In this document: piece after piece, positions 44,583-64,000 of the stretch
How the letters are laid out: the number at the start of each line of letters is the position of its first letter
Position numbering within the stretch: position 1 is the first letter of the stretch
From: Falciphora oryzae
Lineage: Eukaryota; Ascomycota; Sordariomycetes; Magnaporthales; Magnaporthaceae
DNA: 64,000 nucleotides
Direction of reading: 5' to 3'
Assembly (NCBI GenBank): GCA_000733355.1
Contig: JNVV01000012.1
Span: 270,557-334,556 of the forward strand
Made by a program: the position numbers and the translations under genes
Notes under the pieces: model-generated
Told to the model about the DNA's origin: nothing
Database searches by the model: none
Seen by the model: the letters and a program-made list of their open reading frames with translations, nothing else

Positions 44583-45305
44583 ATGTTGCTCATTTTCTTC
44601 GTAGCCGGAATCGTTACTTTCGTCATCTCCCGTTGCCTACCAACCAAACGGGGGCCTCTCCCGGACGAGCCGCAGGCCGCCGTCCCTTGCGACGGCATAA
44701 AGCTAAGGCACCCTGCCGTCCAGTACTTTGCAGATATCCTCGCTCGGCACCCCGAATCGCTCCCGGATCCGGTTCGAAACGTCATTTGCGAGGTCGACCA
44801 GATGCTGATAGCGTGCTGCGCCACGCATCGCGGGGGGCACCCGATTGACATCTCCGCCATTGTTGCCGCAGCAGGCGACGGCGAGGACTGGGGCGAGCTA
44901 CTCAACCACCCGATCGGGCGTCTGCCGGGGCTGCAGGCCATGGTGATGCGCGTCCTCGCCCGCTGGATGAACCCCAACGGCAACCCGGACCAGACTCTGC
45001 TCCCGCCAGGCCTCCTCCGCCTCTACCAGACCATCATCTCCAAGCTCGGAGGGAAGCCGGGCCTCCAGGCAGCCCGGAACGCCTGGCTCAACGTCACCCT
45101 GAACATGATGTGCGAGGCTACGTCGGAGTTTGGCCTAGGGTACCCTTACGGATATGCCTTTGCCGAAGATGACCCTAGGCTTCTCAACGTGCTCAAGCTC
45201 GAGGAGCTGCTCGCTGAGCTACTCGAGCCCTTCGGTTATACCGCGGAAGAGATTGCGCAGTTCCCCGAGGAGGAGAGGGGGTCGTTCGAGGGCATACGCT
45301 CCTAG
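44583..45305 (+). CDS. Membrane-anchored orphan protein, frame interrupted by TAG
   Basis: A 240-aa frame from ATG at 44583 (GCCATGT context). It starts with one membrane span, LLIFFVAGIVTFVIS, followed by a mostly helical region with paired Leu/Ala heptads (for example LKLEELLAELLEPFGY). No family recognised. It ends at TAG (45303), but the same frame stays open, with similar composition and Trp/Gly-rich sequence, for 104 more codons. The gene is thus either a recent nonsense allele, an assembly error, or a read-through gene. No acceptable intron removes the stop: the only GT-AG pair spanning it is 36 nt. Confidence 0.5.
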   Translation: MLLIFFVAGIVTFVISRCLPTKRGPLPDEPQAAVPCDGIKLRHPAVQYFADILARHPESLPDPVRNVICEVDQMLIACCATHRGGHPIDISAIVAAAGDGEDWGELLNHPIGRLPGLQAMVMRVLARWMNPNGNPDQTLLPPGLLRLYQTIISKLGGKPGLQAARNAWLNVTLNMMCEATSEFGLGYPYGYAFAEDDPRLLNVLKLEELLAELLEPFGYTAEEIAQFPEEERGSFEGIRS

Positions 45306-45620
45306 CAAGGCCGCAGGCTCCTCCGCAACACCACCAGGGACGCCGCGAGGTACCGCGTCGCCACCGCACCGGGCGCGGACGAGACCGGCGGCGGCGGCGC
45401 GCCGGGCGTGGAATGGCGTGAGACCCTGTGGCCCAGGTTCTCGCTTCACAGCTTGTCGGGTTGGTACTACGCCAGCTGGCATGCCGATGTCACCGGGGTC
45501 AGGGACCCGCTGTTGCCGTGGGAAGACGAGTCGGAGGATGAGGGCCCTACTGCTGAAGATGCCCTAGGTTCGGCAGGCAGTTGGCGAGAAGGCGTGGCCA
45601 CCCTACGCCTTCGCCTATGA
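45306..45620 (+). other. In-frame coding-like extension after the TAG
   Basis: 104 codons, then TAA-less end at TGA 45618. It contains VEWRETLWPRFSLHSLSGWYY and an acidic DESEDEGPTAED stretch. Continuity of frame and G/C-rich third positions suggest it was or is coding with the upstream part. Confidence 0.4.
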
Positions 45621-46224: not shown

Positions 46225-47768
46225 TCAACTGCTATGCGCAGCCATCAACGCGTAAACCTGCTGCGCCGCCTTTGGGATTTTGTTCTTGCCGCCGCCTGGG
46301 CCGGCCTCGATCTCCATCATCTCGGCGGCCCAGTCGCAGATGGTGCGGGCCAGGTGCTCGACCTGCTCCTCGGTGTTTGCGGCGTGGAACATGAGGCGGA
46401 TGCGGCTCTGGCCGCGCGGCACGGTGGGGTAGTCGACGGGGAAGGCCGAGATTCCGGCCAGCTGCAGCTGGAAGACGAGCCACCAGACGTAGCGCTGGCG
46501 CGACCGCAGCGGCACGATGTGCGCGTTGAACTCGCGCTCCTCCCAGTCCTCGATGACGGGTATGTTGAGGATGCCCTCCTCGTTGGCCCGGGCCCAGTGC
46601 GGGTTGGACTGGATGGTCTTGAAGAAGTGCTTGACCAGGTGCTGGATGTTGTCTTGGTACTGTTTGGGCGGTCAGTTTTCTGTGTCGTTTAATACGGGAA
46701 GGGGTTGCATGCCTTTTGCGTCTCGCCATCGGCCATGAGCTTGTATGCCGCCCTGATGCCGGCGACGGTCGGGAATGAGGGGGCGGTCGTGTAGATGACG
46801 GAGCGGGCAAAGTTCATGATGGTGTTGCGGACCGAGTCGTTCCCGAGGATGACGGCTGGTTGACACGCGAACTGGGGGGGTCAGTAGTCTGCTTCGCTGC
46901 ACGGCGCGGATGGGAGGCGTATCCTCTCACCTCCGGTCGACGCCAGGGCCTTCCCGCAGGTGTGCAACCGCACCGCCACCTGCTTCTCGACGCCCAGCTG
47001 AGACACCAGGCCGGCGCCCTTGGGCCCCAGGATGCCGGTGGCGTGGGCCTCGTCGACGATGAAGACGGCGTTGCCCCTGGGGCACATCTCCTTGGCCACG
47101 TCCATCATCTCGAGCAGCGGGCAGACGTCGCCGTCCATGCTGTAGACGCTCTCGACTGAGATGAGGAGCGAGCGTGAGCCGTCGGCGACCTGGGGCTGCG
47201 AGTCCATGACGCCGGCGATGGCCTCCTTGAGGGCGTCGACGTCGTTGTGGCGGAACTGGACGCGGCACTGGGCCAGCGACGCGCCCATGCCGTCGTGGGT
47301 GCTGGCGTGGACCAGCTCGTCGTAGACGATGGCGTCGCCGGGCCGCGGGATGGCGGCGTAGATGGCCGTGTTGGCCTCGAAACCGCTGCCGACGATGAGG
47401 GCCGTCTCGGCGCCGTGGAAGGCCGCGATCTCGGCCTCGACCTCCTCGATGTAGCCGTAGTTGCCGTCCATGAGGCGCGAGCCGCCAGAGTACATCATGA
47501 AGTCCGGGTGGCGGGCCAGCTCGTCGAGGAAGGCGCGGCGGATGACACCCGTCCTGCCCAGCGAGAGCATGTCGTTGGAGCAAAAGTCGTAGGCGTGCCC
47601 GAGCTTCCAGGCCGACTTTGTGCGCGTGAACATGGAGTGGTCCGCGCGCCGGAGGTCGAGGGCCTCCTCGAGGTTACGGAAGAAGGTCGGCGCGTCCTTC
47701 ATCTGCGGCGCCTGGGGCTTTTGGCTCTTGATCCAGCCGGACAGCAGAGAGATGGCTGCCTCGGACAT
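46225..47768 (-). CDS. Alpha-oxoamine synthase (PLP-dependent acyl-CoA/ACP-amino acid condensing enzyme)
   Basis: Three exons (47768-46931, 46855-46713, 46659-46225) give 471 aa. Intron 1 is GT-AG (75 nt); intron 2 (46660-46712, 53 nt) has a GC donor (AAG|GCATGC), AACTGACC branch and CAG acceptor, and no GT donor preserves the frame. Family blocks: FCSNDMLSLG, GSGGSRLMDGNYGYIEEVE-type segment (MYSGGSRLMDGNYGYIEE), SVYSMDGDVCPL, FIVDEAHATGILGPKGAGL with the PLP-contacting Asp/His, and the Schiff-base Lys in HTCGKALAS (about 271). The family (8-amino-7-oxononanoate synthase, serine palmitoyltransferase, FUM8) condenses an acyl thioester with an amino acid, losing CO2. Here it would release the polyketide and fix the amino head group. 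It is compact like bacterial BioF, lacking an N-terminal membrane region. A biotin-pathway role is possible, but the neighbours argue against it. Confidence 0.85.
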
Positions 47769-48068
47769 GTTGAGGTTTGCGAGGGGGGTACGTTGACGAG
47801 AGAAGGTCCGCGTGTTGGGTTGAGGAAATGCGTTGGTTGTGCTCGTCGTATGATGGCTGGCATGGAACGAACTACGCCATGACGCTGGTGGGTTGGTGTT
47901 TAAAAGCAAAGCCAGACTTGCAGCATCGAGCATCTGGACCTGGCATTGCGATGAAATCCCAGTCCATGGCTAGGGACCCAAGGCAAGTATCCGGAATGCT
48001 TGTTTGCAAGTCATCAGGTCAGCATGAATGCCTCGACGCAGTGCGTCGTGTCACATCTTGGCCTGGGG

Positions 48069-48087
48069 TCGGGGTCGGAACCCGAGG
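48069..48087 (+). promoter_or_regulatory. Cluster motif 1 (CGGAACCCG core at 48076-48084)
   Basis: In the 0.5-kb divergent spacer between the oxoamine synthase and the reductase. The 19-bp TCGGGGTCGGAACCCGAGG is 17/19 identical to motif 3 at 53188-53206. CGG-N3-CCG is an inverted pair of Zn2Cys6 half-sites. Confidence 0.6.
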
Positions 48088-48403
48088 CGGCGGCACGGCG
48101 GGCCCGACATCAGCGCCGCTGAGCGGGATGCAAGGGGCCCGCGATGGGACAGGCCGTTCTGCCGAGAAGGCTTGGTCCGACCAAGAATGCAATTCATATC
48201 ATCGTCCACAGCTTCCAACCGTATCGCACGAGGAAAAAAAAATAAACACACAAACTGCAGCCTTTCCCGAATCTGCTTTCGGCGCAGCAAGTCCAGGGCA
48301 TCGACTATTCGGTACCAAAAATGAAGCAAGACTTGATCGGCAAGGCAAGCGACGACTGTCCACTTCCTGTTCAGAAGATTTGGGGTGAGCGCTGACGCTT
48401 GAG

Positions 48404-49548
48404 AAGACGGCCTTCATCACTGGAGGCGCTGGCGGATTGGGAAGAGCCCTTGCCAAAGAACTGGCGTCTCGAGGTACGCGGTCGGTAGATGTCACCCCCA
48501 GTAGAGTCTACCATTCTAACACAGCCAGGTGCACACATCACCCTCTTCTCCCGAAGCCACGACCCGCTGCAGGAGGCGAAGGAGGAGATCACGCCCTTCT
48601 GCGTCGACAAAAACCAAGATGTCAACATCGTGGAAGTCGACATGGGATATGCCCAAAAGGTAAAACCGTCATTTCCCAGTCCGGTTGTTGCGCGTCTCCA
48701 ACGCCACGGCCGCTGAACTCGCTTCTCTAGGTCGACGAGGCATTCAAGTCGCAGCCCCGGGTCCCCGACATCGTCTACTGCGTGGCCGGAGGCAACTACA
48801 ACCAAAACGGCTTCTTCGTCGACCTCAGCGCCAAGGACCTCGAGGACTGCATGCGCAACAACTACTTCTCCGCCGCCAACGCCGCCAAGACCCTGATGGA
48901 CATCTGGCTCGCCGAGGACGCGTCGGTCCCCAAGCCGCCCCGCCAAAGGCACCGCCAACTCGTCTTCATCAACAGCGCCGCCGCGTTCCTGGGACTGCCG
49001 GGCTCCATCGCCTACACCAGTAAGTCTCGGGGTTTGTGGACATTTCGATGTGAGCCGATCAACAAGATTGACCTTTTCTTCTTCTCGCAGCCTCCAAAGC
49101 CGCCCTGCGCGCCCTGGCCGACACGCTGCGGCTCGAGGTGCTCCGGCACGACACGGCAGAGTCGCACTACTCGATCCACTGCGCCTTCCCGGGCGACTTC
49201 GTGTCGCCGGGCTTCATGAAGGAGCAGGCGACCAAGGTGCACCTGAACAAGACGATCCAGGGCCTGCACCAGCCCATCGAGAAGCTGGTCGGCAAGTTCC
49301 CGTCGTCGGAGAAGGTGGCCGCCATGATCATCAGGGCCGTCGACCGCGGCGACTTCATCGTCACGTACTCGCTCGAGCAACACGCCCTGTTCGCCAACAT
49401 GATGGGCGCCTCGCCCAAGCGCGGCTGGGGCGTGGTCGACACGCTGCTGCAGCCCCTGATGAGCTGGGTCGTCATGCCGTATTTCCGGTCAAAGTGGGAG
49501 GGGCTTGCGAGGGAGGACGGCGAGCGGCTTCGGAAGTCGGGCGAATAG
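48404..49548 (+). CDS. 3-ketosphinganine reductase-like SDR (KDSR/Tsc10/FUM13 type), start unresolved
   Basis: Supported exons are 48404-48473, 48529-48659, 48731-49019 and 49091-49548; introns 55, 71 and 71 nt, all GT-AG. The protein begins KTAFITGGAGGLGRAL (NADPH loop), then CVAGGNYNQNGFF, a motif typical of 3-ketodihydrosphingosine reductases, LEDCMRNNYFSAANAAKT, the Ser of INSAAAFLG, and catalytic YTTSK split by the third intron. A hydrophobic C-terminal segment (WVVMPYF) may anchor it. The start is unclear: an in-frame TGA lies at 48386, and GCTGAC...GAG at 48391-48403 looks like an intron end, but I found no donor and ATG in phase; the ATG at 48321 is in another frame. Expected role: reduce the 3-keto group made by the oxoamine synthase. 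Confidence 0.8.
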
Positions 49549-50078
49549 GTGACAGTGGTACATCCTGCTTCCTGAATGATAATGGTTGCTGTGCGCTGCG
49601 TTCAAGGCTCGGGAATGTGAATTGCAGGTACATATCGGTACTTTCAGCGCCCCCTGGATGCTCGACTGCATTCATCCATGCATAGTGCGCGCCCAGCGAA
49701 CCCCGCGAGACGGGCGATATTCGGTGTCGTAGCGTCAGCGGCACGGCAAACGCTCAGGGTTACATTGGGCTCTTTGAGTCCAGACTCATTGCGCCGGCAA
49801 GCGGCTTTGCTGTGCTCTCGGGAAGGCAGTTCGGCGCGGGCCTGGGACCTAGGGAAGCGTGTGCCGATTGGCGGGCTCCCGGGTTCCGGCGCCCGACTGC
49901 AGGGCTCGGCTGATTTCCGCAGCTTGGCGCCAGTGTTAGGGAGACACGGCAAAGTCGATTTGTTGAGATAGGTACAGCACTAAAGGAAAGCCAGGGGCCA
50001 CGGCCAAGGGCGGGCTCAAACGTTCCCTCCTGCCAGGATAGCTCGCACAGCTGTGCTCCAGAAGACCGAAGCCCCATT
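49549..50078. promoter_or_regulatory. Spacer: reductase 3' end and acyltransferase promoter
   Basis: 530 bp without a gene. It contains cluster motif 2 at 49880. Confidence 0.5.
49880..49888 (-). promoter_or_regulatory. Cluster motif 2 (CGGAACCCG on minus strand)
   Basis: CGGGTTCCG on the + strand, 190 bp before the acyltransferase ATG. Flanks on the minus strand read GTCGGGCGC before the core, resembling the TCGGG flank of motifs 1 and 3. Confidence 0.55.
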
Positions 50079-51644
50079 ATGGATTTTTTCAGGCTCAGGA
50101 GGCGACCTGCCAGTCCAGCGACCGTGCCGACAGACACAATCATCCCCTTCCACTACTATGACGACTCCAAGCACACAAACGGCCTCTGCTTCGACTTCAC
50201 GTTCCGCTTCGACGACGTCCTCGACGCCGACAGGCTGCGCGCCGCCCTCTCTCGGCTGCTAGAGCTGGGCGACTGGCGCAAGCTGGGCGCGCGCATCCGC
50301 AGGGGCACCGACGGGGCGCTCGAGTACCACGTGCCGCGGCGCTTCGACGACGCGCGCCCGGGCTTCGCCTTCTCCACGGCCGCCTTCGACGACGCCGCCG
50401 TCGACGAGCACCCGCAGGCGTCGCGCCTGGCGCGGCCGCACGACCTCGACGCGGCCGGCCTGCCCGTCGCGTTCCACGTGCCGGCGGCGCGGTCGCCCGG
50501 CTTCAAGGCCTTCATCCGCAACCCCGGCTTCCCCGAACGCCTTGACGACTGGCTGGTTTCCGACAGTCCGCAGCTGGGGCTGCACGTCATACGCTTCCGG
50601 GACGCGACCCTCGTCACCGTCTCGTTCCTTCACAGCCTGACCGACATGATGGGCCTCAACGCCATCATGGACGCGTGGACCGCCGTCCTGCGGGGGGACG
50701 AGGCGCAGGTCAAACCGTTCGTCGGCTTCGACCACGACCCGTTGGGGGCGCTCAGCAACAACAGCAAGGCCAAACCGCCGCCGGGGAAGTACCTGTTTGC
50801 GGACAGGCTCCTCACGGGCTGGAGCTGGGTCTTGTTTGCGGCGCGGTACTACCTCTCGATCGAGCTGCTGTGGCCGCGCAGGGAGGAGGAGCGCATCGTC
50901 TTCCTGCCGGCGCAGCACCTCCGACGGATGCGTGAGGAGGCCCTGGCGGAGCTGCTGCAGCAGCAGAGGGGCGAGGGGGAGGCGGCGGCGACGTTTGTGA
51001 GCGAGGGCGACGTCGTCTTCGCCTGGTGGACGCGCGTCGTGCTGCGGGCCGAGCGGCCGTCGCCGGACCGCACGCTCAACATGCGCAACACGTGCTGCTG
51101 CCGGTCGCTGCTGGCGGAGCTCGGGCTCGTCCCGTCAGCGGCGTCGGCGCTGGTCACCAACGCCGTCTTCGGCGCCATCACGTTCCTCAAGGTCCGCGAC
51201 GTGCTCGACAGGTCCCTCGCCTTCACGGCGGCCGAGGTCCGCAGGGCCCTGGTCCGGCAGCGGAGGCCAAAGCAGCTACAGGCGCTGGACGCCATCCGCA
51301 AACGCTGCCTCGACGGCGCGGGACATCCGGCCATTTTTGGAGACCCTGGCATGTTCATGTTCATGGTCTCCAACTGGGAGAAGGCAAAGCTTTTCAAGGT
51401 GGACTTTTCGCCTGCAGTGGTTGGCAAGGGCTTGAGCATCGAGAAACGGAAGAACCATGTGGGGATGCCGTCTTGTCTCCAGGGGAGCGGCACGAGACAC
51501 TACGCGACTCGAAACACGGGCGTGGTGATCGGCAAGGATGCGGGTGGGAATTATTGGCTGTCGTACAATCTGCGTAAAGGGGCTTGGCCGGCGGTAGAAC
51601 AGCAGCTTGTTGCTTTGTCCAAGGAAGACACCAACAGAGTTTGA
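50079..51644 (+). CDS. BAHD-like acyltransferase
   Basis: A single-exon 521-aa protein. The catalytic HxxxD motif is HSLTD at residues 185-189 in VTVSFLHSLTDMMGLNAI. Other family blocks: an N-terminal PFHYYDD and TNGLCFDFTFRFDD, VFAWWTRVVL, and the C-terminal NWEKAKLFKVDF, which stands where plant BAHD enzymes have DFGWG. Fungal relatives in toxin clusters transfer acetyl or other acyl groups from CoA to a hydroxyl or amine. In this cluster it could O- or N-acylate the sphingoid product (sphingofungin C, for example, is an acetyl ester) or protect the producer. The substrate is inferred. The ATG at 50079 starts the conserved region directly. Confidence 0.82.
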   Translation: MDFFRLRRRPASPATVPTDTIIPFHYYDDSKHTNGLCFDFTFRFDDVLDADRLRAALSRLLELGDWRKLGARIRRGTDGALEYHVPRRFDDARPGFAFSTAAFDDAAVDEHPQASRLARPHDLDAAGLPVAFHVPAARSPGFKAFIRNPGFPERLDDWLVSDSPQLGLHVIRFRDATLVTVSFLHSLTDMMGLNAIMDAWTAVLRGDEAQVKPFVGFDHDPLGALSNNSKAKPPPGKYLFADRLLTGWSWVLFAARYYLSIELLWPRREEERIVFLPAQHLRRMREEALAELLQQQRGEGEAAATFVSEGDVVFAWWTRVVLRAERPSPDRTLNMRNTCCCRSLLAELGLVPSAASALVTNAVFGAITFLKVRDVLDRSLAFTAAEVRRALVRQRRPKQLQALDAIRKRCLDGAGHPAIFGDPGMFMFMVSNWEKAKLFKVDFSPAVVGKGLSIEKRKNHVGMPSCLQGSGTRHYATRNTGVVIGKDAGGNYWLSYNLRKGAWPAVEQQLVALSKEDTNRV

Positions 51645-51922
51645 ACTTTGAAGACGGGATCGGCAGGTAGATGCGATTAATATTTGAGTTGTTTAATTCT
51701 CTCAGTAACTAGTTAAATTATTTTTTCTGGCCTTTTTCATCCCATGTTTTGTCCGAAATAAACTTCGAAGAAACCTCTTCAGTCTAGAAATGGACCAAGA
51801 TTCGCCAAGAGCCCAAGTAACGAGCACCCCACTGGGATAAAGCCCTGAAGTGAAATACGATCTTTTGTAATTATAGAATCTCACAGCTCGGCTATGCTCC
51901 TGTAACAGTCACTTTCTGACAA
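51645..51922. other. Short convergent spacer
   Basis: 278 bp between the stops of the acyltransferase (+) and hydroxylase (-). AT-rich, fitting two facing 3' ends. Confidence 0.5.
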
Positions 51923-53017
51923 TTAAGCCTGTTTTCTCAACCTCAGCTCGGAGAGCTCGTTATCAAGAACGAGACCCGTAGTAATAGAGCCGTCCGCATC
52001 ACCATTGATGGGGTCTGCCGGCTTGACGTCGTCGACGGCAGCCTTGGAAGGCTCATAAACCTTGCGAGGCCCAGTATACGCCGTGCCCATCCAAATATCC
52101 CACCATGGGAAGTAAGTCGCAAAGTTGAACTAAGCATAAAAGACGGGTTAATTATCAATGGGGATGTCGCCTCACTGAGAGACTGAATTGGTTTACTTGC
52201 CTGAAATCCAAAGTTGGCATGATGGATGTTGTGCCACTCTGGCGTATATCCAATCAAACCTCCAATGAGAATAAAGGGACTGTAGGGCAGCTTGTAGGCG
52301 CAGTGGTTCTCGCAGGATCGGACCGTGGCCAGCGACAGGAACACGGCCTGCTCGACGTCTGTGAGGCGTGGGATGGCAGAGGCGAGCTGTGAAGCGACTA
52401 TGTCGAAGCAGATGCTCTCGGCGGGGTGGTTGTACGCCGAACCAAAGGAGAAGGAGTTGTAGAGCTCGTGGTGCATCGAATGGAAGCGTTCTACAGGCCG
52501 AAGAGGTCAGCCACGGCAAGCTGCACTACAGTGGGCATCACTTACTGAACCACCACCTGTTGCGGTGGGCAAACAGGTGCGTCCAGTACAGCCAGGTGTC
52601 AAAGATGAAGAAGGCAATGAACTGCCTCACGCCGAGATACGTGAGCCTCGCAAGCCAGGCCAGCGCGGCCAGCTGTATCGAACTACTGTCGTGGGGGATG
52701 CCGAGCAGCTCCGATGCGGACGACTGCCAGTAGGCGTACGAGCCGAAGCAGTCTGAACATTCCTGGAGGGGAGGGAGGATGTGGATGAAGACGAGGGAGA
52801 GGGCGGTGGTGACGCTGTGGTAGGCGACGGCGTGCGTGATGACGGCCGCCCTCGACACCTTGTTCCGTTTCAGCTCCTCGGCGCTGGGGTAGACGCGGTG
52901 CTGCTCCCAGATGTTGAACGTCTCGAGGGTTGTGAAGAAGAGCGTGCCCAGGATGTAGCTCGTCACGGGGGAGATGGCTGCCCATTGGGAGGTTGTCAAG
53001 CTCGGGAGAATGTCCAT
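51923..53017 (-). CDS. Fatty-acid hydroxylase superfamily, SUR2-like sphingoid-base hydroxylase
   Basis: Three exons (53017-52546, 52490-52201, 52129-51923) give 322 aa. Intron 1 is GT-AG (55 nt); intron 2 (52130-52200, 71 nt) is GC-AG with a consensus GCAAGT donor. Di-iron histidine boxes: HLFAH (about 145), HSMHH (about 160) and HNIHH (about 248). Four or more hydrophobic segments place it in the ER membrane. The order FIFDTWLYWTHLFAHRN then FHSMHHELYNSFSFGSAYNHPAE is characteristic of the SUR2 branch that hydroxylates C4 of dihydrosphingosine. In the cluster it is expected to hydroxylate the sphinganine-like backbone near the head group. Alternatively it supports host sphingolipid metabolism as a resistance function. 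Confidence 0.85.
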
Positions 53018-53187
53018 AATGGCAAATGGGTGGGTTGCGCAGGAATGACGGTGCTGTTTTTTTCTTTGCTGGCAAGATGGGGGTGGAGGGCTCACTCTCG
53101 ACTTTGGGTGTTGATTTTTATTGATCTCGAAACCTCAAGGTCCCCAATCGCCGCACAGTCGAGCTTGTGCCTGCAAGGTCCAAAATC

Positions 53188-53206
53188 TCGGGGTCGGAAT
53201 CCGAAG
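53188..53206 (+). promoter_or_regulatory. Cluster motif 3 (CGGAATCCG core at 53195-53203)
   Basis: TCGGGGTCGGAATCCGAAG, nearly identical to motif 1. It lies about 180 bp upstream of the hydroxylase ATG. Confidence 0.6.
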
Positions 53207-53223
53207 GGCGGCCAGACGGAGCC

Positions 53224-53232
53224 CGGAACCCG
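53224..53232 (+). promoter_or_regulatory. Cluster motif 4 (CGGAACCCG)
   Basis: Lies in a larger near-palindrome, GCCCGGAACCCGGGC. Its spacing of 29 bp from motif 3 would suit paired regulator dimers. Confidence 0.6.
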
Positions 53233-53697
53233 GGCTGGGAGATTCCAATCCTTTCCTGCGCAGCGGCGTGATTGGGAGGATTGGATGCATGCGCCCTTGC
53301 CGCACACATGGTTGGACAGACAAACGAAATTGATGCAATGTCAGCGATGCGCAATCCGGCAGCATGTGGTGTTGTCCTCCCGCTTGTGCGACCAGTCTCC
53401 TCAATCCGAGGGAAGGTGAAGGCTGCATGCCTGCCGTGTGAGCCGCGGGCGATTTGGCACCTAGCCGTGGGCGGCTGGGGGTTTTCTGCTGCAGCCAACA
53501 CCGCCTGGAACTTGGCCATGCTCCCGCCTCCAAAAAAAAAATTGGCGCTGCGGGTCCCAGCGAAAACCAACGTTCAATTCACGACAAACTCGAGAATCTG
53601 CGCCCGCCTTGGCACCGTCGACGTCGCTTTGGGTCTCCAAACTCAATTCAGGGCACACCGCGCGCCCGAGTGGACCCCATCTCCCGGCTTCTTCATC

Positions 53698-55512
53698 ATG
53701 CGCCACTCGGACGCCAAGACCGGCGGTCCTGGTGTCGAGGCCGCCGCGGTCGCCGTCGCCGGGGATTTGCTGGAGATGCAAGAACGCCCAAAGGACGCGG
53801 AAAAGGCACCCGAGCAGCCTCGCGGGCCCGACGAGCAGATTGGGGAGGTCAAGACGCAGCCCGCGCCGAAAAAGTCCTTGTCCTTCTGGCTTGCCTTCGC
53901 GGGCCTCGCCCTGGTCCTCTTCGTCTTCCAGCTCGACGCGACCTGCCTGAGCATCGCCCTCCCTGTGAGCCTGACAAGACCATGATCCATGTCCAGCGGC
54001 GTCAACGTTTCGCCTGTTGATCGAGCCCCAATCCTAACCCATGGCGCGTGTCGGCAGGCGATCTCTGGCGATCTTAAGGGCACTAGCCTCGAGGCGTTCT
54101 GGGCGAACCTTGGCTACAGCCTCTGCGGCCTGGTCATGCAGCCCGTCTGGGCCAGCCTCTCGCACGCCTTCGGCCGAAAGTACCCCCTCCACGTCTCGGT
54201 GGCGCTCTTCTTCGTCGGCTCCATCGTGTTCGCCCTGGCCCGAAGCATGAACACCGTCATCGCCGGCCGCGTCCTCCAGGGGCTCGGCGGTGGCGGCATC
54301 GACGTGCTGGCGTCCATCATCCTCGCCGACATGACCACCCTGGAAGAGCGCTCCAAGTACCTCGGCCTGATGGCCATCCCCAGCGCCGTCGGCAACATCC
54401 TGGGCCCCTTCGTCGGCGCGCTCTTCTCCACCTATACTAGCTGGAGATGGATCGGCTGGATCAACCTGCCCCTGCTGGGAACCGGGGCAGTGCTGCTCTT
54501 CTTCTTCCTCAAACTTCGCGCCGTCCCGCTCGGGGCAACCCTCGTTGCCAACCTGAAGCGCCTCGACTGGGTAGGCATGCCGCTTGTCGTCGTCGGAATC
54601 TCCATTTTCTGCATACCCGTCAGCTGGGCAGGGTCGTTGTTTCCGTGGACCTCCTGGCAAACCCTCCTTCCCCTGCTCCTGGGAGTTGCCATCCTCGGTG
54701 TGTTTGCTTGGTATGAGTCCAAGCCCGCGGCACCAATCATCCCTCATCGGCTCTTCCAGACAAAGACGGGAAACATGGCCTTGCTGGGCGGCTTCGTCCA
54801 CGGCATTGTTCTCATCTCGCTGCTTCAGTACCTGCCATTGTTCTACCAGGCTGTCCAGCTCAAGACCGCCATCCAAGCTGCCGTTTTCCTGCTGCCTACC
54901 ACTATTTTGAGCGTGGTGGTCGCGGCCGTCTCCATGATGATGGTCCCCCTGTTTGGAGGATACGTATGGCTCTTGCGGGTTTCATGGGTCATCACCGCGC
55001 TCGGTACCGGCTTGCTAGCCCTCTTCGAGGTGGGAGCCTCGACGCCGATGCTCTACGGGCTGCCGATCCTCTGGGGCCAGGGCGTTTCGCTGCTGCGTCT
55101 CACCATGCTGCCCGTGCAGGCGAGCGTCAAGCAGGTCGACGACGAAGGCCTGGCGACGGCAAACTTCCTCACCATCCGCATGTTTGGCGCCCTCGTTGGC
55201 CTGGCCATCTGCTCTCCCATCTTCAACGTTGTCTTCTCAACCTCCATCTCCCAGGCCGGGCTTGACCTGACGGGAACACTGGCTCCTCTGCAGGATGCCT
55301 CCAATGCCGTTAGCTTCATCGGCAAGCTGATAGGACTGGATGTTTCCCCCTCGACCTTGGATCGGGTCTTGGGGGTCTACCTCGAGTCTTTCAAGGTCAT
55401 CTTCTACACCATGACAGGGCTGACCGGGATCGGCTTGGTGTCTTCGGTGTTCCTGGACGAGATCGAGCTGAAGAGGAAGGACCGGGGGAACCAGCACTTT
55501 GAGGATAACTAG
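53698..55512 (+). CDS. MFS exporter (DHA2/14-span toxin-efflux type)
   Basis: Two exons (53698-53964, 54058-55512; 93-nt intron with CCTAAC branch) give 573 aa. A charged ~60-residue cytosolic N terminus precedes the first span (FWLAFAGLALVLFVFQLDATCLSIALP). Motif A is LSHAFGRKYPL, followed by GRVLQGLGGGGIDVLASIILADMTTLEERSKYLG-type sequence and a GNILGPFVGALFS variant of antiporter motif C. Length and hydrophobic segments fit about 14 spans. Transporters of this group export fungal secondary metabolites at the plasma membrane by proton antiport. It shares a divergent promoter with the hydroxylase, so it is probably co-regulated and the exporter or self-protection component of the cluster. 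Confidence 0.88.
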
Positions 55513-55656
55513 ACCTGCCGGGACATTTTGCTATTGGGATTGAACTTGCGATTGCGAAAGCATGGTAATGGGAAAATATTTCATTCTAATCTTTGTCGAG
55601 GTCCATGGGCAGGAGAACTCAGGTCCTTCGTGGATGTAATCATGGGGATTAGATGT
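55513..55656. other. Convergent spacer of 144 bp
   Basis: Between the stops of the MFS and dioxygenase genes. Confidence 0.6.
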
Positions 55657-56679
55657 TTAGACGGCAGCTGCTTGCCCGTTCTCACCCTTGCCGTTCAACT
55701 TGTCATAGTCGATCATGTCCCACTGCTTGGGCTGGGTCATGACGCCCTCATCCAGCAGCGCCTGCATGGCGCCTTGGAAGTCGTCCAGCCCCAGATGCAG
55801 CGCCAGCTCGGTGTAGTCCTTGGTCCACAGCCCCGGCGAGCCGCGGGGGTACTGGGACCGGAAGCCGACGAAGCGCTGGGCCCGCTTGGACAACTTCCTG
55901 GCAGTCTCGGGGGTGATGATGAAGGGGTGGGCCTCGGAGGGCGTGAGGAAGCTGGGGACGACGGTCAGCTGGGTGCACTTGCGCTCGGTCGCGGTCCTGT
56001 TCTCGCCCATGGCGTGCACGACCTTGCCGCTGATGAGCAGGCAATCGCCCATGTCCATCTCGGCGGGTATGGTCTGCTCCATGCGGCCGCGCTGGTCAAA
56101 CGGCCAGCGGTTGCTGCCGGGGATCACGCGGGTCGCGCCGTTGTCGTCGCGGAAGTCGGAGAAGGCGAACAGGAAGCTGATCTTGGCCTCTGTCCCGTCG
56201 GGCCCCAGCTGCGCGTAGGGCGGGTACGAGGTCAGGTCGCGGTGCAGCACCTGGCCCGGCTGCGGGCCCATGGCGTCGAGCGTGGACGCGGTCGAGAGCC
56301 AGTAGTCGCCGTTGTGGCCGCCCTCGCGGAAGCAGCGGCCGCACACGGCGTGCACGAAGGCGCTCTCGACGACGCGCGCGCGGAACGTAGGCGAGTGGTT
56401 GATGAGGTCGCCCGCGCGCCGCGTTCGGGTGCCGTGGAAGATCTGCAGGTCCTTGTGCGGCACCAGGCTGCCGCGCTGCACCGTGCGCAACAGCGGCTCC
56501 AGCTCGGCGTTGATCTGGGCGGCTTCCGAGCGCGTGAGCATGCCCTTGATGATGACGGCGCCCGATTTGTGCCACGCCGCGAAGACGTCGTCCAGCGGCG
56601 TGTCGACCGTCACCTCGGCGAGCTTGGGCAGGCCGTTGGACTGGGCCGTCTGGGGGACGTCGGTGGGGACTCGCCACAT
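55657..56679 (-). CDS. PhyH-family Fe(II)/2-oxoglutarate dioxygenase
   Basis: A single-exon 340-aa protein. The facial triad is HRD in QVLHRDLTSYPPY (about 146) and the distal His in GKVVHAMGENRT (about 221); the 2-oxoglutarate-binding Arg is probably the one in that last block. The N-terminal block GAVIIKGMLTRSEAAQINAE and the central FLFAFSDFRDDNGATRVIPGS are typical of phytanoyl-CoA-dioxygenase-like enzymes of fungal secondary metabolism. Fumonisin FUM3, a C-5 hydroxylase, is a 2-oxoglutarate dioxygenase with the same role type. Expected action is hydroxylation (or desaturation) of the polyketide backbone. The substrate is inferred. The ATG at 56679 directly precedes the conserved part. 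Confidence 0.87.
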   Translation of the reverse strand: MWRVPTDVPQTAQSNGLPKLAEVTVDTPLDDVFAAWHKSGAVIIKGMLTRSEAAQINAELEPLLRTVQRGSLVPHKDLQIFHGTRTRRAGDLINHSPTFRARVVESAFVHAVCGRCFREGGHNGDYWLSTASTLDAMGPQPGQVLHRDLTSYPPYAQLGPDGTEAKISFLFAFSDFRDDNGATRVIPGSNRWPFDQRGRMEQTIPAEMDMGDCLLISGKVVHAMGENRTATERKCTQLTVVPSFLTPSEAHPFIITPETARKLSKRAQRFVGFRSQYPRGSPGLWTKDYTELALHLGLDDFQGAMQALLDEGVMTQPKQWDMIDYDKLNGKGENGQAAAV

Positions 56680-57387
56680 GGTTGCGTCTTGGGGGTGGGT
56701 GGCGGACGGGATGGCGGTGGTGAATCAGGGCTCGAAGGGTTCGGTAACCGGTCAAGCAGGGCGGGAGAGATGCTGGACTGATACGTTCTAGATACCGCCT
56801 AGTATCGGTGTTTTATCGTAAAAGGAACCCTCGGAAGTTAGGTCTGCCTCAAAAGAAGCCCCAGGCACGGCCCGTCCACCGGTCCGCCGGTCACCCGCAG
56901 GTCGCAGCCATCGGGCTTGCGGGTTCCGGTCCCGAGGCTGGCTAGTCGAAGCACGCAGATCCTGGTCGTCCCACGCCAGCCACAGGATCGGCTCGCCGAG
57001 AGCGGGCAGGGGCCTGGTTCAGGGACATCAGGGGTCGGGACGAAGACGGAGGGGTTTGGGTCATTGCGAGATAGTGAACCGGCGTAGTCTGTCTTGTCGC
57101 GATAGTAACACAGACATCATGAGCCTAGGTACCGACATCAGTTTATAGCTGGGTAGGCTGCTTGAAGGTTCGAGCTTTTTGCGGCTGGCGCAGGAAGATG
57201 TGGAAACAAATAGATTGTATCGCGGATAGATTGGATTTGATCAATAAGGCCATATTTTCATACATGAGAGCATATAGGAATCAACAAAATGAACACAATA
57301 ACTAGTCATCAGAGCAGCAGATGGAAACCAGCGCACAAACGAAACGCCAGAAAAGAACCTTCGCAAAAAAAACAGCCAAAAGCAACC
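56680..57387. promoter_or_regulatory. Spacer: dioxygenase promoter and PKS 3' end
   Basis: 708 bp without a gene; contains cluster motif 5. AT-rich part near 57210-57300 is likely the PKS 3' UTR. Confidence 0.5.
56920..56928 (-). promoter_or_regulatory. Cluster motif 5 (CGGAACCCG on minus strand)
   Basis: CGGGTTCCG on the + strand, 241 bp upstream of the dioxygenase ATG. The minus strand reads CTCGGGACCGGAACCCGC, sharing the TCGGG flank of motifs 1 and 3. Confidence 0.55.
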
Positions 57388-60300
57388 CTACGCTCCCTTG
57401 TCCTCAGTTGTCTTCCTATACAGCTCCTCGGCGGCATGCTGCCCCAGAATGTCCAAAGACCCCATGCTCATCATCTCCAGCATGGGAATATCCAACGAAA
57501 ACACCTGCTTGATCCACGCGCGCAGCTCAAGCGCCACGAGCGAGTCGAGCCCGAGGTCAACCAGGGGCATGCTGGTCTTGAGGCCGTCCTGGGGCTTGAG
57601 CAGAAGGTCGAGCAGCTTCTTACCGATCTCGACGGCGAAGAGCCCGGCCGCCTGCTGGGTCTTGAGCACCAACGGGTCCGCCTGGGCGCCGCTCAGGTAG
57701 GAGCGCAGCACGTCGGTCGACGCGGCCGCGACGGCGGCCGTCGAGTTGTTGTGGTACGACGCCATGCGCCGGTCCTTTTTCCAGATGACGTAGTTGCTCG
57801 GGTCGTGCAGCGGGATCAGCAGAGCGAGCCCGACGAGGAAAGTGTTCTTGTGCGAGAAGCCAAACGCGTTCCTCGAGTTGGCCGCGGCCGCGCCGGCAAG
57901 CGCCGCCCCGAGGCCCCCCTCGGCCCGGCTGTGCACCTGCATGGAGATGGCCATGGCGTCGATGACCTCCTGCTCCAGGACCGGCTTGAAGCCGCTGCGC
58001 GACATCTTGCCGATCATGCCCTGGTGCTCCGAGATCCACCCGACGTCCTCGACGGCGCCCATGTCGACGACCGAGGCCGGGAGGCCCAGCCCGTTGCGGT
58101 ACTGGGCGAAGGCATCCAAGAAGCTGTTGCCGCTGGCGTAGTTTGCCTGACCGGCCTGCCCGACGATGCCCGACACAGAGCTGAACATGAGGAAGAAGTC
58201 GAGGTCCGCGCCCGCGGCCACCGAGGCGTTGTGCAGGTTCCAGGTGCCCCGGACCTTGGGCGCAGTCGACGCGTTCCACTCGTCGTGGCTCATCCGCGTG
58301 TAGTTCTCGTTGGCCACTACCATGGACATCTGGACGATGCCCTTGAGCGGTAGGGTTGCCGCCGCGATCGCCCTCTCGACGTCCTCCAGCTTGGTGGTGT
58401 CGCCCGCGACGAGCTTGGCTTTGCAGCCTATGCTTTCCAGCTCCCGGACAAAGGCGTCGTCCTTGTTGGTGAGGCCGGCGCTGCGAGACATGTAGATGAT
58501 CTCTCGGGCCCCGTGGTCGGCCATCCACGTGGACACGGCGCGGCCGATGCCGCCAAGGCCTCCGATCATGAGGTAGGAGGCGGAGCCGCTGAAGGAAACG
58601 TCCAGCTGCCTCCTGACAGTCTGGAGCGGCTCCGACTCTCGTCCGGCCTGCTTCATGGACACGCCGACACGGCCGATGTGCAGACCCTTCTCCATAAAGC
58701 GGAACGCGTCCGTGGTCTGGGACACGGGGAAGATGCGCATGGGGAGCGGCGAGATGTGGCCCTTGTCGTAAAAGTCCAGGATGGTGAAGATCAAGGCCCT
58801 GGCGACGTGGATCCGCTTCCACAGCCCGTCGATGTCGACGCAGCAGTAGTTGCGGTTCGCCAGGAAGGGCTTCATGTCGAGCTTCCCGTCACCGATCAGG
58901 TCCCTCTTGCCGATCTCGAGAAGAGTCCCAAACTCGGCGACGCAGCTCCAGGTGGCGTGCAGGAGCTCTCCGGAGAGCGAGTTGAGGACGAAGTCGACGC
59001 CGCGGCCTCTGGTCTCGCGCATGACGCCGTCCACGAAAGACCTGTCGCGAGAGTTGAAAATGCGGTTTCTCGGTATGTTGTAGTTGTCCATCAGATACTT
59101 GACCTTTTCCTCGCTACCGACCGTGACGTACAGCTCGGTCTCCAGCATCCGGGCAACCTGGATGGCGGCCAGGCCGACGCCGCCGCAAGCGCTGTGGATG
59201 AGAACGGTCTGTATAATGTTACTATTAGTAACGCCATCTGGAGCCACGCTAGGGCGAGCGAGTTGCGGGGTAGTTACTGACCTGGCCCTTCGTGACACGT
59301 CCGACGTTGATCATGGAATGGATGGCGGTGAAGTAGGGAATCAGCATCGTCCCAGCCTGGTCGAACGAGAGGCTGTCGGGAATCCGCACGCAGACGGCCG
59401 CCAGCGTGGTCGTGTAGGTTGAGAAGGCGTCCTTCCTGCAGAAGCAGACGACGCGATCGCCCACTTTGAGATCGTCCGGGCTGACGTCCGATCCGACGCG
59501 GGTGACGACGCCGGCGGCCTCGATGCCGAACAGGCGGACGGGGAGCTCGACGATCCCCAGGGCGACAAGTACGTCCTATAACTAATGCGTTAGTCGATGG
59601 CACTACCAGTAGATCCGGGGAATGAGGAAGTCGGCCCACCCTAAAGTTCAGTCCCGCCGAGTGGACCTCGACCTCGACCTCATCGGCATCGAGCTCCTTG
59701 CGCTTGTGTTTGGCATAGTGCAAGCTGTTGATGCGCCCGGGCGTGGTAACGTTCAGGGTTGCCATCTCATTCGCCTCGTGCGAGATGAGGAGCTCGTCCT
59801 TGAGAACAAAGGGGTGGAAGCGGGCGAGCTGGACGCGGTCGTTGAAAATGGCCCACTCGAAGTCCGGGTTGAGCTCCTCGTCGTCATACGAGCGCGCCTG
59901 AAACCTGGCCAGGACCTGAAGGAGGCGGCTGATGGACCCGGGGCTGTCAAAGTCGTCGACCTGGCAGGTCCCCAGCTCGGCTAGCTGCTCCGTGCGGACG
60001 GTCCTGGCGAAGCCGAGAACCTGGGCGTACCTGGGATCCTTGCATCCGATGTCGACGAGATGCGTCGCCCAGAGCATCCCGGCGCCCTTCTCCTGGAGCC
60101 CAAGGAGGAATGCCTTGAAGGCCTTGAAGTTTGCCTCCTCAATGTCGTGGAAGAAAGGCTTGTCAACATCCAGCAGGGAAAGCACATCCTGTCCGGCTGG
60201 GGCTTCATCGGCGAGCCCGCACTTGACGATCTCATAGCCGCCCTCCTCGAGCTGGCCCAGGATGCGCTGAACCTGGGCTCCTTCATTTTCCACAAGCACG

Positions 60301-63300
60301 GTGACCTTTTTGACAAGCGCCTCGGCCACGGGCCTGGTGACGATGGTCGCCGTGACCTGGAAAGGGGCCTCGGCGTCGAGAACCACGGCCTCGGGCGCGT
60401 CAAAGCCGGCAACGGCAAGCCTCGACTGCAGCTCGTCGGTGCTAAAGTACGGCGGCTGGGCCGGGCCGTCCGAGGGGCTCGACCACCAGCTCGGGAGGAC
60501 CCCCAGCAGATAGTCCACCCACCTCGACGACGGGCAGAGCTCCTGCAAGAACAGCCTGCCATTCGGCTGGAGGAGCTTCCTCATGTTGGCGAGGCTCTGC
60601 TGGGCACTCTTGGCCTCGCGGAGGGTGTTGATGGCGATGATGAGATCGTAGCTGGTGTCGGCAAAACCCTGGTCGAAGGGGTCTTCGTTGATGTTCAGGG
60701 TCGCATAGTCCATGTTGGCGAACAGCTTCTCCTGGGCCTCGGCTGCGAGGTAGCCCGGCGTGGTCAGCGTGTACTTGGCGCAGAGTATTTCACCGTCCTC
60801 GCGAGTGAGGTGCTGCAGGATCTCGCGGTGGAACGAGACGCCGCTGCTGGTGCCAATCTCGAGGATGCGGAGGTTGGGCTTGGAGTGCATCAGTTGCTGA
60901 ATAAACTCCTTCCGCTCCACGTGTCCGAGGTACTGGTGGACGGGCTCAAAGGCTCCTTCGGATAGCACATCTTCCAGGCGGCCGCCAGACAGCAGCGAGT
61001 CCAGATTCATGCAGACCTGATACATGGCAGCAGCGACTGGGCCCGCAGGCGTGTCGGCCAGCTGGTTCAGCAAGCCATCAATACCGGCGACAAGCCCCTG
61101 TCTGTCGAATCCTGTGGAGAAGAGAGGCAGAGTGGGAGACCCGACTGTCGGCTGGGACTCGATCCAGTCAACGTGCTTCTGGAGATATGCCGGGTTCGCG
61201 CTATACGACGACTCGGCGAGCCGCGACTGGGACAGGCGCAGGCAGAACTCGCCCAGCGCGCCAAGTGCGCCCGAGTGGTGAGCCCGTATCTGAGGCGTGT
61301 GGAAGAGCTCCTGGACGTCCAGGCAGTCAATGTCGGGCTTCCACTCGCACCTCGACGCGGCGTGCCCGTCCGTTATCTCGATGGCGCCGGCGCCGTCCGC
61401 AGGGGACATACGGATGCCAGTCGCGTCGACGACCTTTTTACCATTCGAGAAGCACGAGCCATGGCCGACGACGGAGGAGTTGCTCGACAGCTTGGCCGCG
61501 ACGTTGGTGATTACGTCCGAGCCGCACATGTACACCTTGATCTGGTCGATGCCGGTCGGCAGCCAGGTCTTGGTGTTGCGGGCTTTGCCGTTGATGGCGG
61601 CAGCGCCCAGGATCTGCAGGACCGAATCGAGGACGGTGGGGTGGATGAAGTAGTTGCCCTCGTCCCCCTGTCTTCCGTTGCTGACGTGTCCCATGGCCCG
61701 CTGCTCCCAGGTTGAGGTAGCCATCGTGGTGAGCGTCTGGAAAGAAGGCCCCAAGTTGAGACCACCCTTGGCCATCTTCTCAAACCACTTCCTCACGTTC
61801 AGCTTCCTGGGGAGGTCTTCCGGCTCCCGCATCTCCTCGGGCGGGGTCTGCAGGGCGGAAACCTGCCCCGTGCAGTGCTTTGTCCAGCTGCGCCCGTTGT
61901 AAGACGACACGGCAAAGTTCCACCACTGGCTGTCCAGGGAGTTGGTCAGGCGGTGTGGGTAAAAGGTGGCCACGATCTCGGTCGGCTTCCCCTCGCTAAG
62001 CACGAGAGCGGTGCTCACGAGGATGTTTCGGACGGCAAAGCCCTCCTCGGCGCCGGTCAGCTGCCTGATGGCCTCGCCCGCGAGCGAAATGTAGCCGCAA
62101 AACGGGAACACGATGTTCTCGCCGACCTTGTGATCGCGCAGCCATGGCGCGTTGGTGATGTGGATGAGGTTGCGCCACACCGGCTCCGTGTCGCTGCACT
62201 CGACCACCCTGAGGCCCAGGAGGTCGTGGTGCGGAAACTTGCGGTTGCGCCAGTCCTTGCTCAGGCGAGATTCGTACCAGTACGTGCCCTCGTGGTTGAA
62301 AGGGTACGTGGGGAGGCCCAGGAGGCTGGACCCCGTTGGGTAGAGGGCCTCGAGGTCGACAGATGCGCCGTTGGAGTGAAGGCCCCCAATCGCCGCAAGA
62401 AGGGACACGACACAGTCCTGGTTACGCGCCATCGCCGACACGTAAGGGAGCGGGGAGTTGGTTTGTGCAAAGATCTGCCTCAGTGGCCCCGCGAGCGCTC
62501 CGTGAGGCCCAACCTCGAGGAAGACGGCGTTCTTCCCGATCTCGTGCCTCAGGATGGCCGAGACGGCCTCGCGGAATCGGACTGGCGACTCCAGGTTCTC
62601 TTGCCAGTACGTCGGCCCGAAAGTGTGCTCCGGGTCCACGAGCTTACCAGTAACGCTGGAGAAGAACAGGACCGACGGTGCTCGTCCGACCACCTGCTTG
62701 TCGATGAGCGCCTGGTAGTGGTGGCCAATCTCCTTCATGTGGTGCGAGTGGTAGGCCTTGTCAACCTGCAGCAGTCTGGCCAGAGTCTGCGGCTGACCCT
62801 CCTTGACTGCCGCGACGACAGCCTCGACAGCTTCGGTGTCGCCCGAGATGGTCACACTCTTTGGGGAGTTGTCGCAAGCGATGGTCACGCCGGGGACGAG
62901 ATACTTTCCCGTCTCTCCCCAGCCCAACCCGATCGCTGCCATGGCCCCGGGCTTCTCCTGCTTGACCGTCACGGCTCCGCGGTGGTGGGCTGCCGTGATT
63001 GCTTCCCCGGCCGTGAGGGCTCCGGCAGCATAGGCCGCCGCGATCTCGCCCGAGGAATGACCCACTACGGCCTGCGGCGTGACCCCTGCAGCCTTCAGGG
63101 TGTCGACGAGCGCGATCTGGACCGCGGTGCAGAGGGGTTGGGAGAACTCGGCCGAGGAAATGCGACTCTTCTTCCCGGCCTTCTTGAGTTCCTCCTGTAT
63201 CGAGTAGCGGGGCTTCTCTCCGTCAATAGATTGAAGATGCTGGTCGAGAGAGCGGATGCTGGACTTGAAAGCATCGTTGGACTGCAGCAGTTCCAACCCC

Positions 63301-64000
63301 ATACGGGGCCACTGAGCGCCTTGGCCGGTGAAGACCATGACGACGTCCCTGGGCTTGGAGGGATCTACCTGCACCCGCGGAGAGACGGTTTCGAGAATGC
63401 CGTTCTTGACGATGCCGAAAGCCCGGTGCGATAGTTGTCTCCTCCTTCTGGCGAGGGTGTAGGCCAGATCAGCGATCTTGTCCGTGTTCTGCTCGATCCA
63501 GGGCTTGTAGCCATCGACTAGCCTGGTGAAGGACTTGGGCGAGTTTGCCGAGAACAAGAGGAGCTCGGGAGACTCGGAAGGCTCGTGGACCGCAGCCGGG
63601 ACGCCGTGGTAAGCCGCGGACTCCAGAATGACGTGGGCGTTTGCGCCACCAATGCCAAAGGAGTTGACGCTCACGCGGTCGAGGCGGCCTTCTGGCCACG
63701 GCATCGCCTCCGTCGGGACCGACAGCTTCGCCTCCTCGAACGGGATGTTGGGGTTGGGGGTAGTAAACTTGATGTTGGGAGGAATGGTGCGGTGCTGAAG
63801 CGCCTTGACCATCTTCAAGAGTGACACCAAGCCGGACGCAGCCTCGGTGTGTCCTAGATTGGGCTTGACCGAGCCGATGTAGACGCCCTTCTCCCCGAAG
63901 ACGCGGGCAACGGCCTTGGTTTCGATGGGGTCGCCCGTCGCCGTGCCGGTGCCGTGGCACTCGACCATGGCGGTCTCAGAGAAGTCGTCGATGCCCGCGA
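57388..64000 (-). CDS. Highly reducing polyketide synthase (partial, N terminus outside window)
   Basis: Three exons in view (64000-59640, 59575-59282, 59208-57388; introns 64 and 73 nt) encode the last 2157 aa. Domain order: KS end (catalytic His in VECHGTGTATGDP and VKPNLGHTEAASG), AT (VVGHSSGEIAAAYAAG, about 63040-63070), DH (DHKVGENIVFP near 62130 and HPTVLDSVLQ near 61640), C-MT (60450-60960), ER (HSACGGVGLAAIQVA near 59180), KR (GGLGGIGRAV near 58555; Tyr in QANYASGNSF near 58140) and ACP (LGLDSLVALELRAW near 57545). No thioesterase or reductase follows, so chain release must be done in trans, fitting the alpha-oxoamine synthase. The methyltransferase SAM motif is altered (LEIGTSSGVS instead of ExGxGTGG), so C-methylation may be lost. 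DH, ER and KR look intact, so a largely saturated chain is expected. Confidence 0.95.

What the first reader, a model, noticed from the sequence alone, without database searches (positions are those of the whole stretch)
46225..64000. A sphinganine-analogue biosynthetic gene cluster
Seven contiguous genes combine a thioesterase-less HR-PKS, an alpha-oxoamine synthase, a 3-ketosphinganine-type reductase, a SUR2-like hydroxylase, a PhyH dioxygenase, a BAHD-like acyltransferase and an MFS exporter. Direct evidence: family motifs listed in the features. Known: PKS plus oxoamine synthase plus ketoreductase is the core of fumonisin (FUM1/FUM8/FUM13), AAL-toxin and sphingofungin pathways. Inference: this cluster makes a long-chain amino-polyol that may inhibit ceramide synthase or serine palmitoyltransferase. 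The mix of a SUR2-like enzyme and a PhyH dioxygenase, with no P450 in view, differs from the FUM cluster and could mean a new congener.
Basis: partly seen in the sequence, partly recalled or inferred. Interest (0 to 1): 0.9.

Follow-up and report, generated by a model that had tools for sequence, protein, structure and literature searches.

The report
Sphingofungin-type gene cluster variant
A fungus related to the wheat-root genus Gaeumannomyces carries an intact-looking set of genes that resembles the known recipe for sphingofungins, compounds that block the first step of sphingolipid synthesis, but with a membrane hydroxylase and no neighbouring cytochrome P450.

Summary
Seven adjacent genes encode a thioesterase-less HR-PKS, an alpha-oxoamine synthase (AOS), an SDR, a BAHD-like acyltransferase, a SUR2-like FA_hydroxylase, a PhyH dioxygenase and an MFS exporter. 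The PKS runs 1.1 kb past the window; a Zn2Cys6 regulator follows it. The AOS matches PDB 9pep, named SphA, at 420 bits against 103 for the best enzyme outside that type; the acyltransferase groups with proteins that NCBI names 'acetyltransferase sphE', its nearest relative being Gaeumannomyces hyphopodioides (94%). The likely product is an O-acylated aminopolyol that inhibits serine palmitoyltransferase (inferred). The distinctive part is the SUR2-like hydroxylase, 32% identical to the genome's own Sur2-type gene and apparently recurring beside sph-type genes elsewhere, while no P450 was found in the cluster. It may do the ER oxidation that P450 SphH does in Aspergillus, or serve self-protection; neither is shown. 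PKS-AOS-SDR clusters are already described across ascomycetes, so this is a new variant of a known kind. I found no report of it in Gaeumannomyces, or of a SUR2-type hydroxylase in such a cluster, in the open-access papers searched.

The parts
46225..47768 (-). Alpha-oxoamine synthase, SphA-type (three exons; PLP lysine in TCGKALAS)
   Evidence: Pfam PF00155 on exon 1; PDB 9dos 425 bits (named 8-amino-7-oxononanoate synthase) and 9pep 'Aminoacyl transferase sphA' 420 bits; tree; exon frames
48321..49548 (+). Short-chain dehydrogenase/reductase, 3-ketosphinganine-reductase-like (SphF/FUM13 role); start codon uncertain, its position inferred
   Evidence: adh_short in two of three pieces, under cut-off; weak match to TSC10 8jat, E 0.02; one paralogue match in the genome at 42%; motifs TGGAGGLG and YT/ASK read
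50079..51644 (+). BAHD-like acyltransferase, SphE-type (HxxxD as HSLTD)
   Evidence: PF02458; 94% to Gaeumannomyces hyphopodioides RB595_007794, 63% and 65% to two proteins named 'acetyltransferase sphE'; tree
51943..53017 (-). SUR2-like membrane hydroxylase (three exons)
   Evidence: PF04116; 14 relatives, 4 of them named 'sphinganine C4-monooxygenase' by JGI; 32% to the genome's own Sur2-type gene; exon frames
53698..55512 (+). MFS exporter, DHA2/TRI12-like (SphD role); two exons
   Evidence: MFS_1 102 bits, TRI12 67 bits; efflux_EmrB 110 bits, below its cut-off of 230
55657..56679 (-). PhyH-type Fe(II)/2-oxoglutarate dioxygenase (possible SphC role)
   Evidence: PF05721; fungal secondary-metabolism dioxygenases PrhA, AusE, EasH, SptF are among its best PDB matches
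57388..64000 (-). Highly reducing PKS KS-AT-DH-MT-ER-KR-ACP, no thioesterase found; continues to window-equivalent 65129
   Evidence: Pfam; N-terminal part in L009:1-1686; intron in the ER domain

Best explanation
This is a sphingofungin-type (SAM1-like) biosynthetic cluster. Proposed route: the HR-PKS builds a reduced chain held on its ACP; the AOS releases it by decarboxylative condensation with a small amino acid or aminomalonate; the SDR reduces the resulting 3-ketone; the SUR2-like di-iron hydroxylase, in the ER membrane, does the chain oxidation that P450 SphH does in Aspergillus; the PhyH dioxygenase adds the C-4 hydroxyl; the acyltransferase acetylates (O-5 in sphingofungin C); the MFS protein exports the product. 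The product should inhibit serine palmitoyltransferase. Shown here: gene content, open frames, and the family and close relatives of the AOS and the acyltransferase. Inferred: every reaction, their order, the product and its target.
For: AOS exon 1 scores 420-425 bits against PDB 9pep (named SphA) and 9dos (named 8-amino-7-oxononanoate synthase, but by eye near-identical to the Aspergillus udagawae row P0081), and 103 bits or less against the ALAS, AONS, KBL and SPT chains. It joins the 35-row SAM-type group, apart from BioF and the genome's own Lcb2-like and ALAS-like enzymes (96/80). The acyltransferase has two NCBI-named sphE relatives at 63% and 65%, with A. fumigatus at 63% and P. variotii at 61%, and sits with them in a 19-row group (100/99). 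The Aspergillus sph set (SphA AT, SphB PKS without recognisable TE, SphC C-4 hydroxylase, SphD MFS, SphE acetyltransferase, SphF ketoreductase, SphG regulator, SphH P450; PMC10936153 sections 3 and 5 and passages) has a candidate counterpart here for each but SphH and SphI. SUR2-like hits share exact contig lengths with AOS or acyltransferase hits in 4 of 14 cases (33417, 8821, 28044, 4418486). No P450 was found in the cluster.
Against: No expression or metabolite data. The AOS lies outside the strongly supported 4-row clade that holds the A. udagawae and P. variotii enzymes (100/100) and differs from it beside the PLP-side histidine (HASTHDG against H[FL]STHTG), so amino-acid choice and product may differ from sphingofungin. 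PhyH, SDR, MFS and PKS were not compared with SphC, SphF, SphD and SphB. The genome has 107 P450 matches, all on other contigs or 45 kb away, so an unlinked P450 could still act. Equal contig lengths are only indirect evidence of linkage. No Claviceps or Aspergillus row is named among the 14 SUR2-like hits though both have the acyltransferase, so the SUR2-like gene may be missing from many sph-type clusters; that search reaches only relatives sharing exact words (94 candidates).
Confidence: 0.72

Rival explanations
1. The SUR2-like enzyme is not a tailoring enzyme but a self-protection gene: it converts sphinganine, made by the cluster's own AOS and SDR, into phytosphingosine so that the producer keeps sphingolipids while serine palmitoyltransferase is inhibited.
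For: A sphingolipid-supporting double role of SphA and SphF is reported in A. fumigatus (PMC10936153 abstract and passages). The enzyme is a Sur2 homologue (32% to the genome's own Sur2-type gene) and JGI names 4 of 14 relatives 'sphinganine C4-monooxygenase'. A C-4 hydroxylase for the product may already be present as PhyH.
Against: The genome keeps its own Sur2-type gene, whose step is not the inhibited one; the cluster copy has diverged far, as expected for a changed substrate.
Confidence: 0.2
2. The cluster makes a sphinganine analogue of another sort (fumonisin- or AAL-like polyol, ceramide synthase inhibitor).
For: PKS, AOS and SDR are the core shared by the proposed SAM clusters (PMC7376913 section 5).
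Against: AOS and acyltransferase are of SphA and SphE type; I saw none of the side-chain genes that I recall from FUM. FUM8 and AAL sequences were not on hand for a direct comparison.
Confidence: 0.1
3. The cluster is silent or decaying and makes nothing.
For: Sphingofungin itself was linked to its cluster only through overexpression (PMC11051388 passages); a frame without Pfam match that may be a gene relic lies beyond the regulator.
Against: The frames inspected are open with plausible introns and catalytic motifs can be read; the acyltransferase is 94% conserved in G. hyphopodioides.
Confidence: 0.15

Closest known systems
Sphingofungin (sph) cluster of Aspergillus fumigatus (and Paecilomyces variotii)
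   Same: PKS without thioesterase, SphA-type AOS, ketoreductase, a further oxygenase for the C-4 role, SphE-type acetyltransferase, MFS, transcription factor nearby
   Different: SUR2-like hydroxylase present and no P450 (SphH) found; AOS outside the 4-row Eurotiomycete clade; no SphI counterpart identified
SAM1 and SAM1-like clusters (Fusarium, Metarhizium, Hypoxylon and others; PMC7376913)
   Same: PKS, AT and SDR with a dioxygenase; the AOS shares 71-72% with one Fusarium and two Metarhizium rows, whose membership of SAM1 was not checked; serine at the residue-83 column
   Different: Fusarium SAM1 has a P450; the Metarhizium cluster has the dioxygenase but no P450; SUR2-like and SphE-type genes are not described in the sections I read
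Fumonisin (FUM) cluster
   Same: PKS, oxoamine synthase and ketoreductase core
   Different: Larger: 10 enzyme genes beyond that core (PMC7376913 section 12); P450s and a methylated chain (recalled); AOS not compared directly here

Membership tests
Sphinganine-analogue (SAM) cluster | PKS, aminotransferase (AOS) and SDR genes close together | tested here: met
   (SDR weak, in pieces)
Sphingofungin-type (sph) cluster | SphA-type AOS, apart from BioF, ALAS and Lcb2 | tested here: met
   420 bits to 9pep (named SphA), 425 to 9dos, 103 for the next chain; tree (the three outgroup branches are long)
Sphingofungin-type (sph) cluster | AOS inside the clade of the A. udagawae and P. variotii enzymes | tested here: not met
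   that 4-row clade is 100/100 without the window
Sphingofungin-type (sph) cluster | SphE-type acetyltransferase | tested here: met
Sphingofungin-type (sph) cluster | P450 SphH in the cluster | tested here: not met
   no P450 match nearer than 45 kb to the right (92 of 163 candidates scored); 0 haem motifs in the window and next 18 kb
Sphingofungin-type (sph) cluster | SphC-type C-4 oxygenase | tested here: inconclusive
   PhyH dioxygenase present; no SphC sequence compared
Sphingofungin-type (sph) cluster | Makes a sphingofungin that inhibits serine palmitoyltransferase | not testable with these tools
   needs culture and LC-MS
Sur2 sphinganine C4-hydroxylase | FA_hydroxylase domain and Sur2-like sequence | tested here: met
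   PF04116; 32% to the genome's own Sur2-type gene, its relatives 34-39%; that L020 is Sur2 rests on recalled motifs. No PDB match to a relative at E up to 1
Sur2 sphinganine C4-hydroxylase | C4-hydroxylates sphinganine | not testable with these tools
   needs yeast complementation

The most novel reading that the evidence does not exclude
A distinct branch of sphingofungin-type clusters has recruited a duplicated Sur2 sphingolipid hydroxylase from primary metabolism, so that the fungus oxidises a sphingolipid mimic with a copy of the enzyme that oxidises the real sphingolipid, instead of with a P450; the product is an undescribed serine palmitoyltransferase inhibitor in or near a genus that holds both the take-all pathogen and its antagonist.
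Probability: 0.4. Interest if true: 0.55.

Novelty: new variant of a known kind. Interest (0 to 1): 0.4.

Why it matters
Sphingofungins and myriocin are tools and leads against serine palmitoyltransferase. A branch that uses a Sur2-type hydroxylase points to untested chemistry and gives a direct way to ask whether such a gene tailors the inhibitor or protects its maker. If G. hyphopodioides, described as a potential biocontrol agent of wheat take-all (PMC11905480 abstract in a search listing), carries the whole cluster, its product would be a candidate for that antagonism (inference; only its acyltransferase was seen here).

Tried and rejected
Second AOS-hydroxylase locus on contig C37: matches to PF00155 and PF04116 16 kb apart suggested a duplicate cluster, but the cluster proteins did not match there, apart from a chance row at E 0.46 from a query in the wrong frame; rejected. 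Organism by 5.8S rRNA: no match; placed near Gaeumannomyces by the acyltransferase alone. First AOS tree: void for the two genome outgroups, because I took the longest frame of L016 and L017 rather than the matching one; redone. The 'BAHD' query started one base off and is void. A fold of the SUR2-like family was not obtained: the machine was busy four times. NCBIfam gave no match for the hydroxylase relatives, acyltransferase or dioxygenase.

Full report
What is there. The window is C12:270557-334556 of a 50.2 Mb, 123-contig genome. Between 46225 and 64000 lie seven genes. Reading left to right: AOS (-), SDR (+), BAHD-like acyltransferase (+), SUR2-like FA_hydroxylase (-), MFS (+), PhyH dioxygenase (-), HR-PKS (-). 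Pfam supports each, the SDR weakly and under its cut-off. The PKS has KS, AT, DH, a methyltransferase-like region, ER, KR and ACP in that order, with no thioesterase among the matches. Motifs read: KS TACSS, AT GHSSG, KR GGLGGIG, ACP LGLDSL. The methyltransferase region reads EIGTSSG where I recall a more glycine-rich motif in active ones, so it may be inactive, in line with an unmethylated product (inference from recall). The frame breaks I looked at are explained by short introns.

Edges. To the right the PKS starts at the equivalent of 65129, followed by a Zn2Cys6 protein (PF00172 43.7 bits; Fungal_trans 22.7 bits, just under its cut-off of 23), a candidate counterpart of SphG, the sph cluster's transcription factor (PMC10936153 passage). 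Its exon structure was not worked out. Then come a frame without Pfam match and a WD40 gene. To the left are an unassigned gene (44547-45567, no Pfam match), an L32-type ribosomal protein and a septin.

Which system: the AOS. The AOS exon-1 search scored 8000 candidates and found 5766 at E up to 0.001, the best 120 listed: an unnamed row 94%, Chaetothyriales sp. CBS 132003 92%, Claviceps sorghi 88%, Cercophora scortea 81%, Teratosphaeria nubilosa 79%, A. udagawae 69% (named 8-amino-7-oxononanoate synthase by its source), P. variotii 68%. In the PDB the best are 9dos (425 bits, named 8-amino-7-oxononanoate synthase) and 9pep, named 'Aminoacyl transferase sphA' (420 bits); the third, an ALAS, has 103 bits. 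By eye 9dos is near-identical to the A. udagawae row and 9pep to the P. variotii row, so the biotin-type name on 9dos looks inherited from annotation. E. coli BioF and the genome's own ALAS-like and Lcb2-like enzymes (labels mine) are at 32-34%. NCBIfam's best profile for the AOS is bioF at 174 bits, far under its cut-off of 426. In the tree the SAM-type group of 35 rows is split from the three outgroups (96/80, long outgroup branches), and the window sits in an 11-row clade (99/96) with Cercophora, Claviceps, Chaetothyriales, Teratosphaeria and four unnamed rows, not in the 4-row clade of A. udagawae, P. variotii, Penicillium and Trichophyton (100/100). At the column I equate with ALAS residue 83 (by alignment with the genome's ALAS-like enzyme, plus recall) 32 of 35 rows have serine, 2 threonine, 1 alanine; after the PLP-side histidine 30 of 35 have alanine, whereas the 4 rows of the Eurotiomycete clade have F or L and one other row M. 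PMC7376913 predicted alanine as the substrate of SAM1 enzymes from that serine (section 9), while work on A. fumigatus gives aminomalonate (PMC10936153 passage; the primary paper was not read). So the amino-acid donor cannot be read from these residues.

Which system: the acyltransferase. It gave 86 hits among 8000 scored candidates. The best is G. hyphopodioides at 94%; two at 63% and 65% are named 'acetyltransferase sphE' by NCBI (A. thermomutatus, A. clavatus); A. fumigatus has 63%, P. variotii 61%. Down the list, identities over most of the query then step from 59% (Dothistroma) to 52%, 49% and 42%. In the tree the window falls in a 9-row clade (100/99) with G. hyphopodioides, Discula, two Claviceps, Dothistroma and three unnamed contigs, inside the 19-row sphE-type group (100/99); the tool warned of long branches among the distant rows. 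SphE acetylates sphingofungin B to C (PMC10936153 passages), at O-5 by the wording of PMC9603476 (passages).

The odd part. The SUR2-like gene has 14 relatives among 94 candidates by shared-word search, 4 of them named 'sphinganine C4-monooxygenase' by JGI, with Penicillium palitans at 67% and Discula destructiva as a partial match. AOS and SUR2-like gene are single in this genome apart from distant kin: the SUR2-like exon matches one other gene, on C3, at 32%; three relatives match that gene at 34-39%. I take it as canonical Sur2 from recalled motifs. Exact contig lengths are shared between SUR2-like hits and listed AOS or acyltransferase hits for 4 of 14 (33417 with both, 8821, 28044, and 4418486, which is Discula). 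The three of these contigs that have an acyltransferase hit are in the window's 9-row acyltransferase clade, and the two that have an AOS row are in its 11-row AOS clade. The nearest P450 match on the contig is 45 kb right of the PKS start (92 of 163 candidates scored), and no haem motif was found in the window or the next 18 kb. In A. fumigatus the P450 SphH acts in the ER, before cytosolic SphC adds the C-4 hydroxyl (PMC10936153 passages). A Sur2-type ER enzyme would fit that slot; that is my inference. The rival is self-protection, since SphA and SphF are reported to support the producer's sphingolipids (PMC10936153 abstract).

Known or new. PKS-AT-SDR clusters were surveyed in Fusarium; putative SAM clusters were also found in 43 species of 24 other genera, 26 of them with an SDR gene, including a Metarhizium SAM1-like cluster with a dioxygenase and without a P450 (PMC7376913 abstract and sections 5, 8, 9, 10, 12). 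Its supplementary files were not seen. Papers holding at least three of Gaeumannomyces, biosynthetic gene cluster, sphingofungin and polyketide numbered 135, 20 listed. The genus-wide genome paper among them, PMC11905480, has 0 occurrences of sphingofungin and names five clusters similar to known ones, none of this kind (12 of 18 passages seen). A search for three or more of fatty acid hydroxylase, polyketide synthase, sphingofungin, myriocin, sphinganine analog and SUR2 gave 9 papers; by the counts in the listing none holds sphingofungin, polyketide synthase and either SUR2 or fatty acid hydroxylase together, though one fumonisin review (PMC7652989) holds the last with polyketide synthase. 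A further search listed 15 of 2,677 papers, none with such a title. These are open-access papers only, and absence there is no proof of novelty.

Verdict. A sphingofungin-type cluster, a new variant by its SUR2-like hydroxylase and missing P450, with product and function inferred.

Noticed in passing
46225-47768: The AOS is closest (92-94%) to Chaetothyriales sp. CBS 132003 and an unnamed row, and its clade mixes Sordariomycetes, a Dothideomycete and Chaetothyriales, at odds with taxonomy: horizontal transfer, differential loss, or a mislabelled or contaminated record.
   Followed up: partly
44547-45567: A frame with a hydrophobic N-terminus and no Pfam match lies between the ribosomal protein gene and the AOS; it could be a cluster gene of unknown role, as SphI is.
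   Followed up: no
L009:6516-7028: A short open frame that reads to me like the end of a SNF2-type helicase (recall) but has no Pfam match; perhaps a relic between the regulator and the WD40 gene.
   Followed up: no
L011-L014 (G000:C37:172000-210499): An aminotransferase-type and an FA_hydroxylase match lie 16 kb apart on another contig but are unrelated to this cluster.
   Followed up: yes
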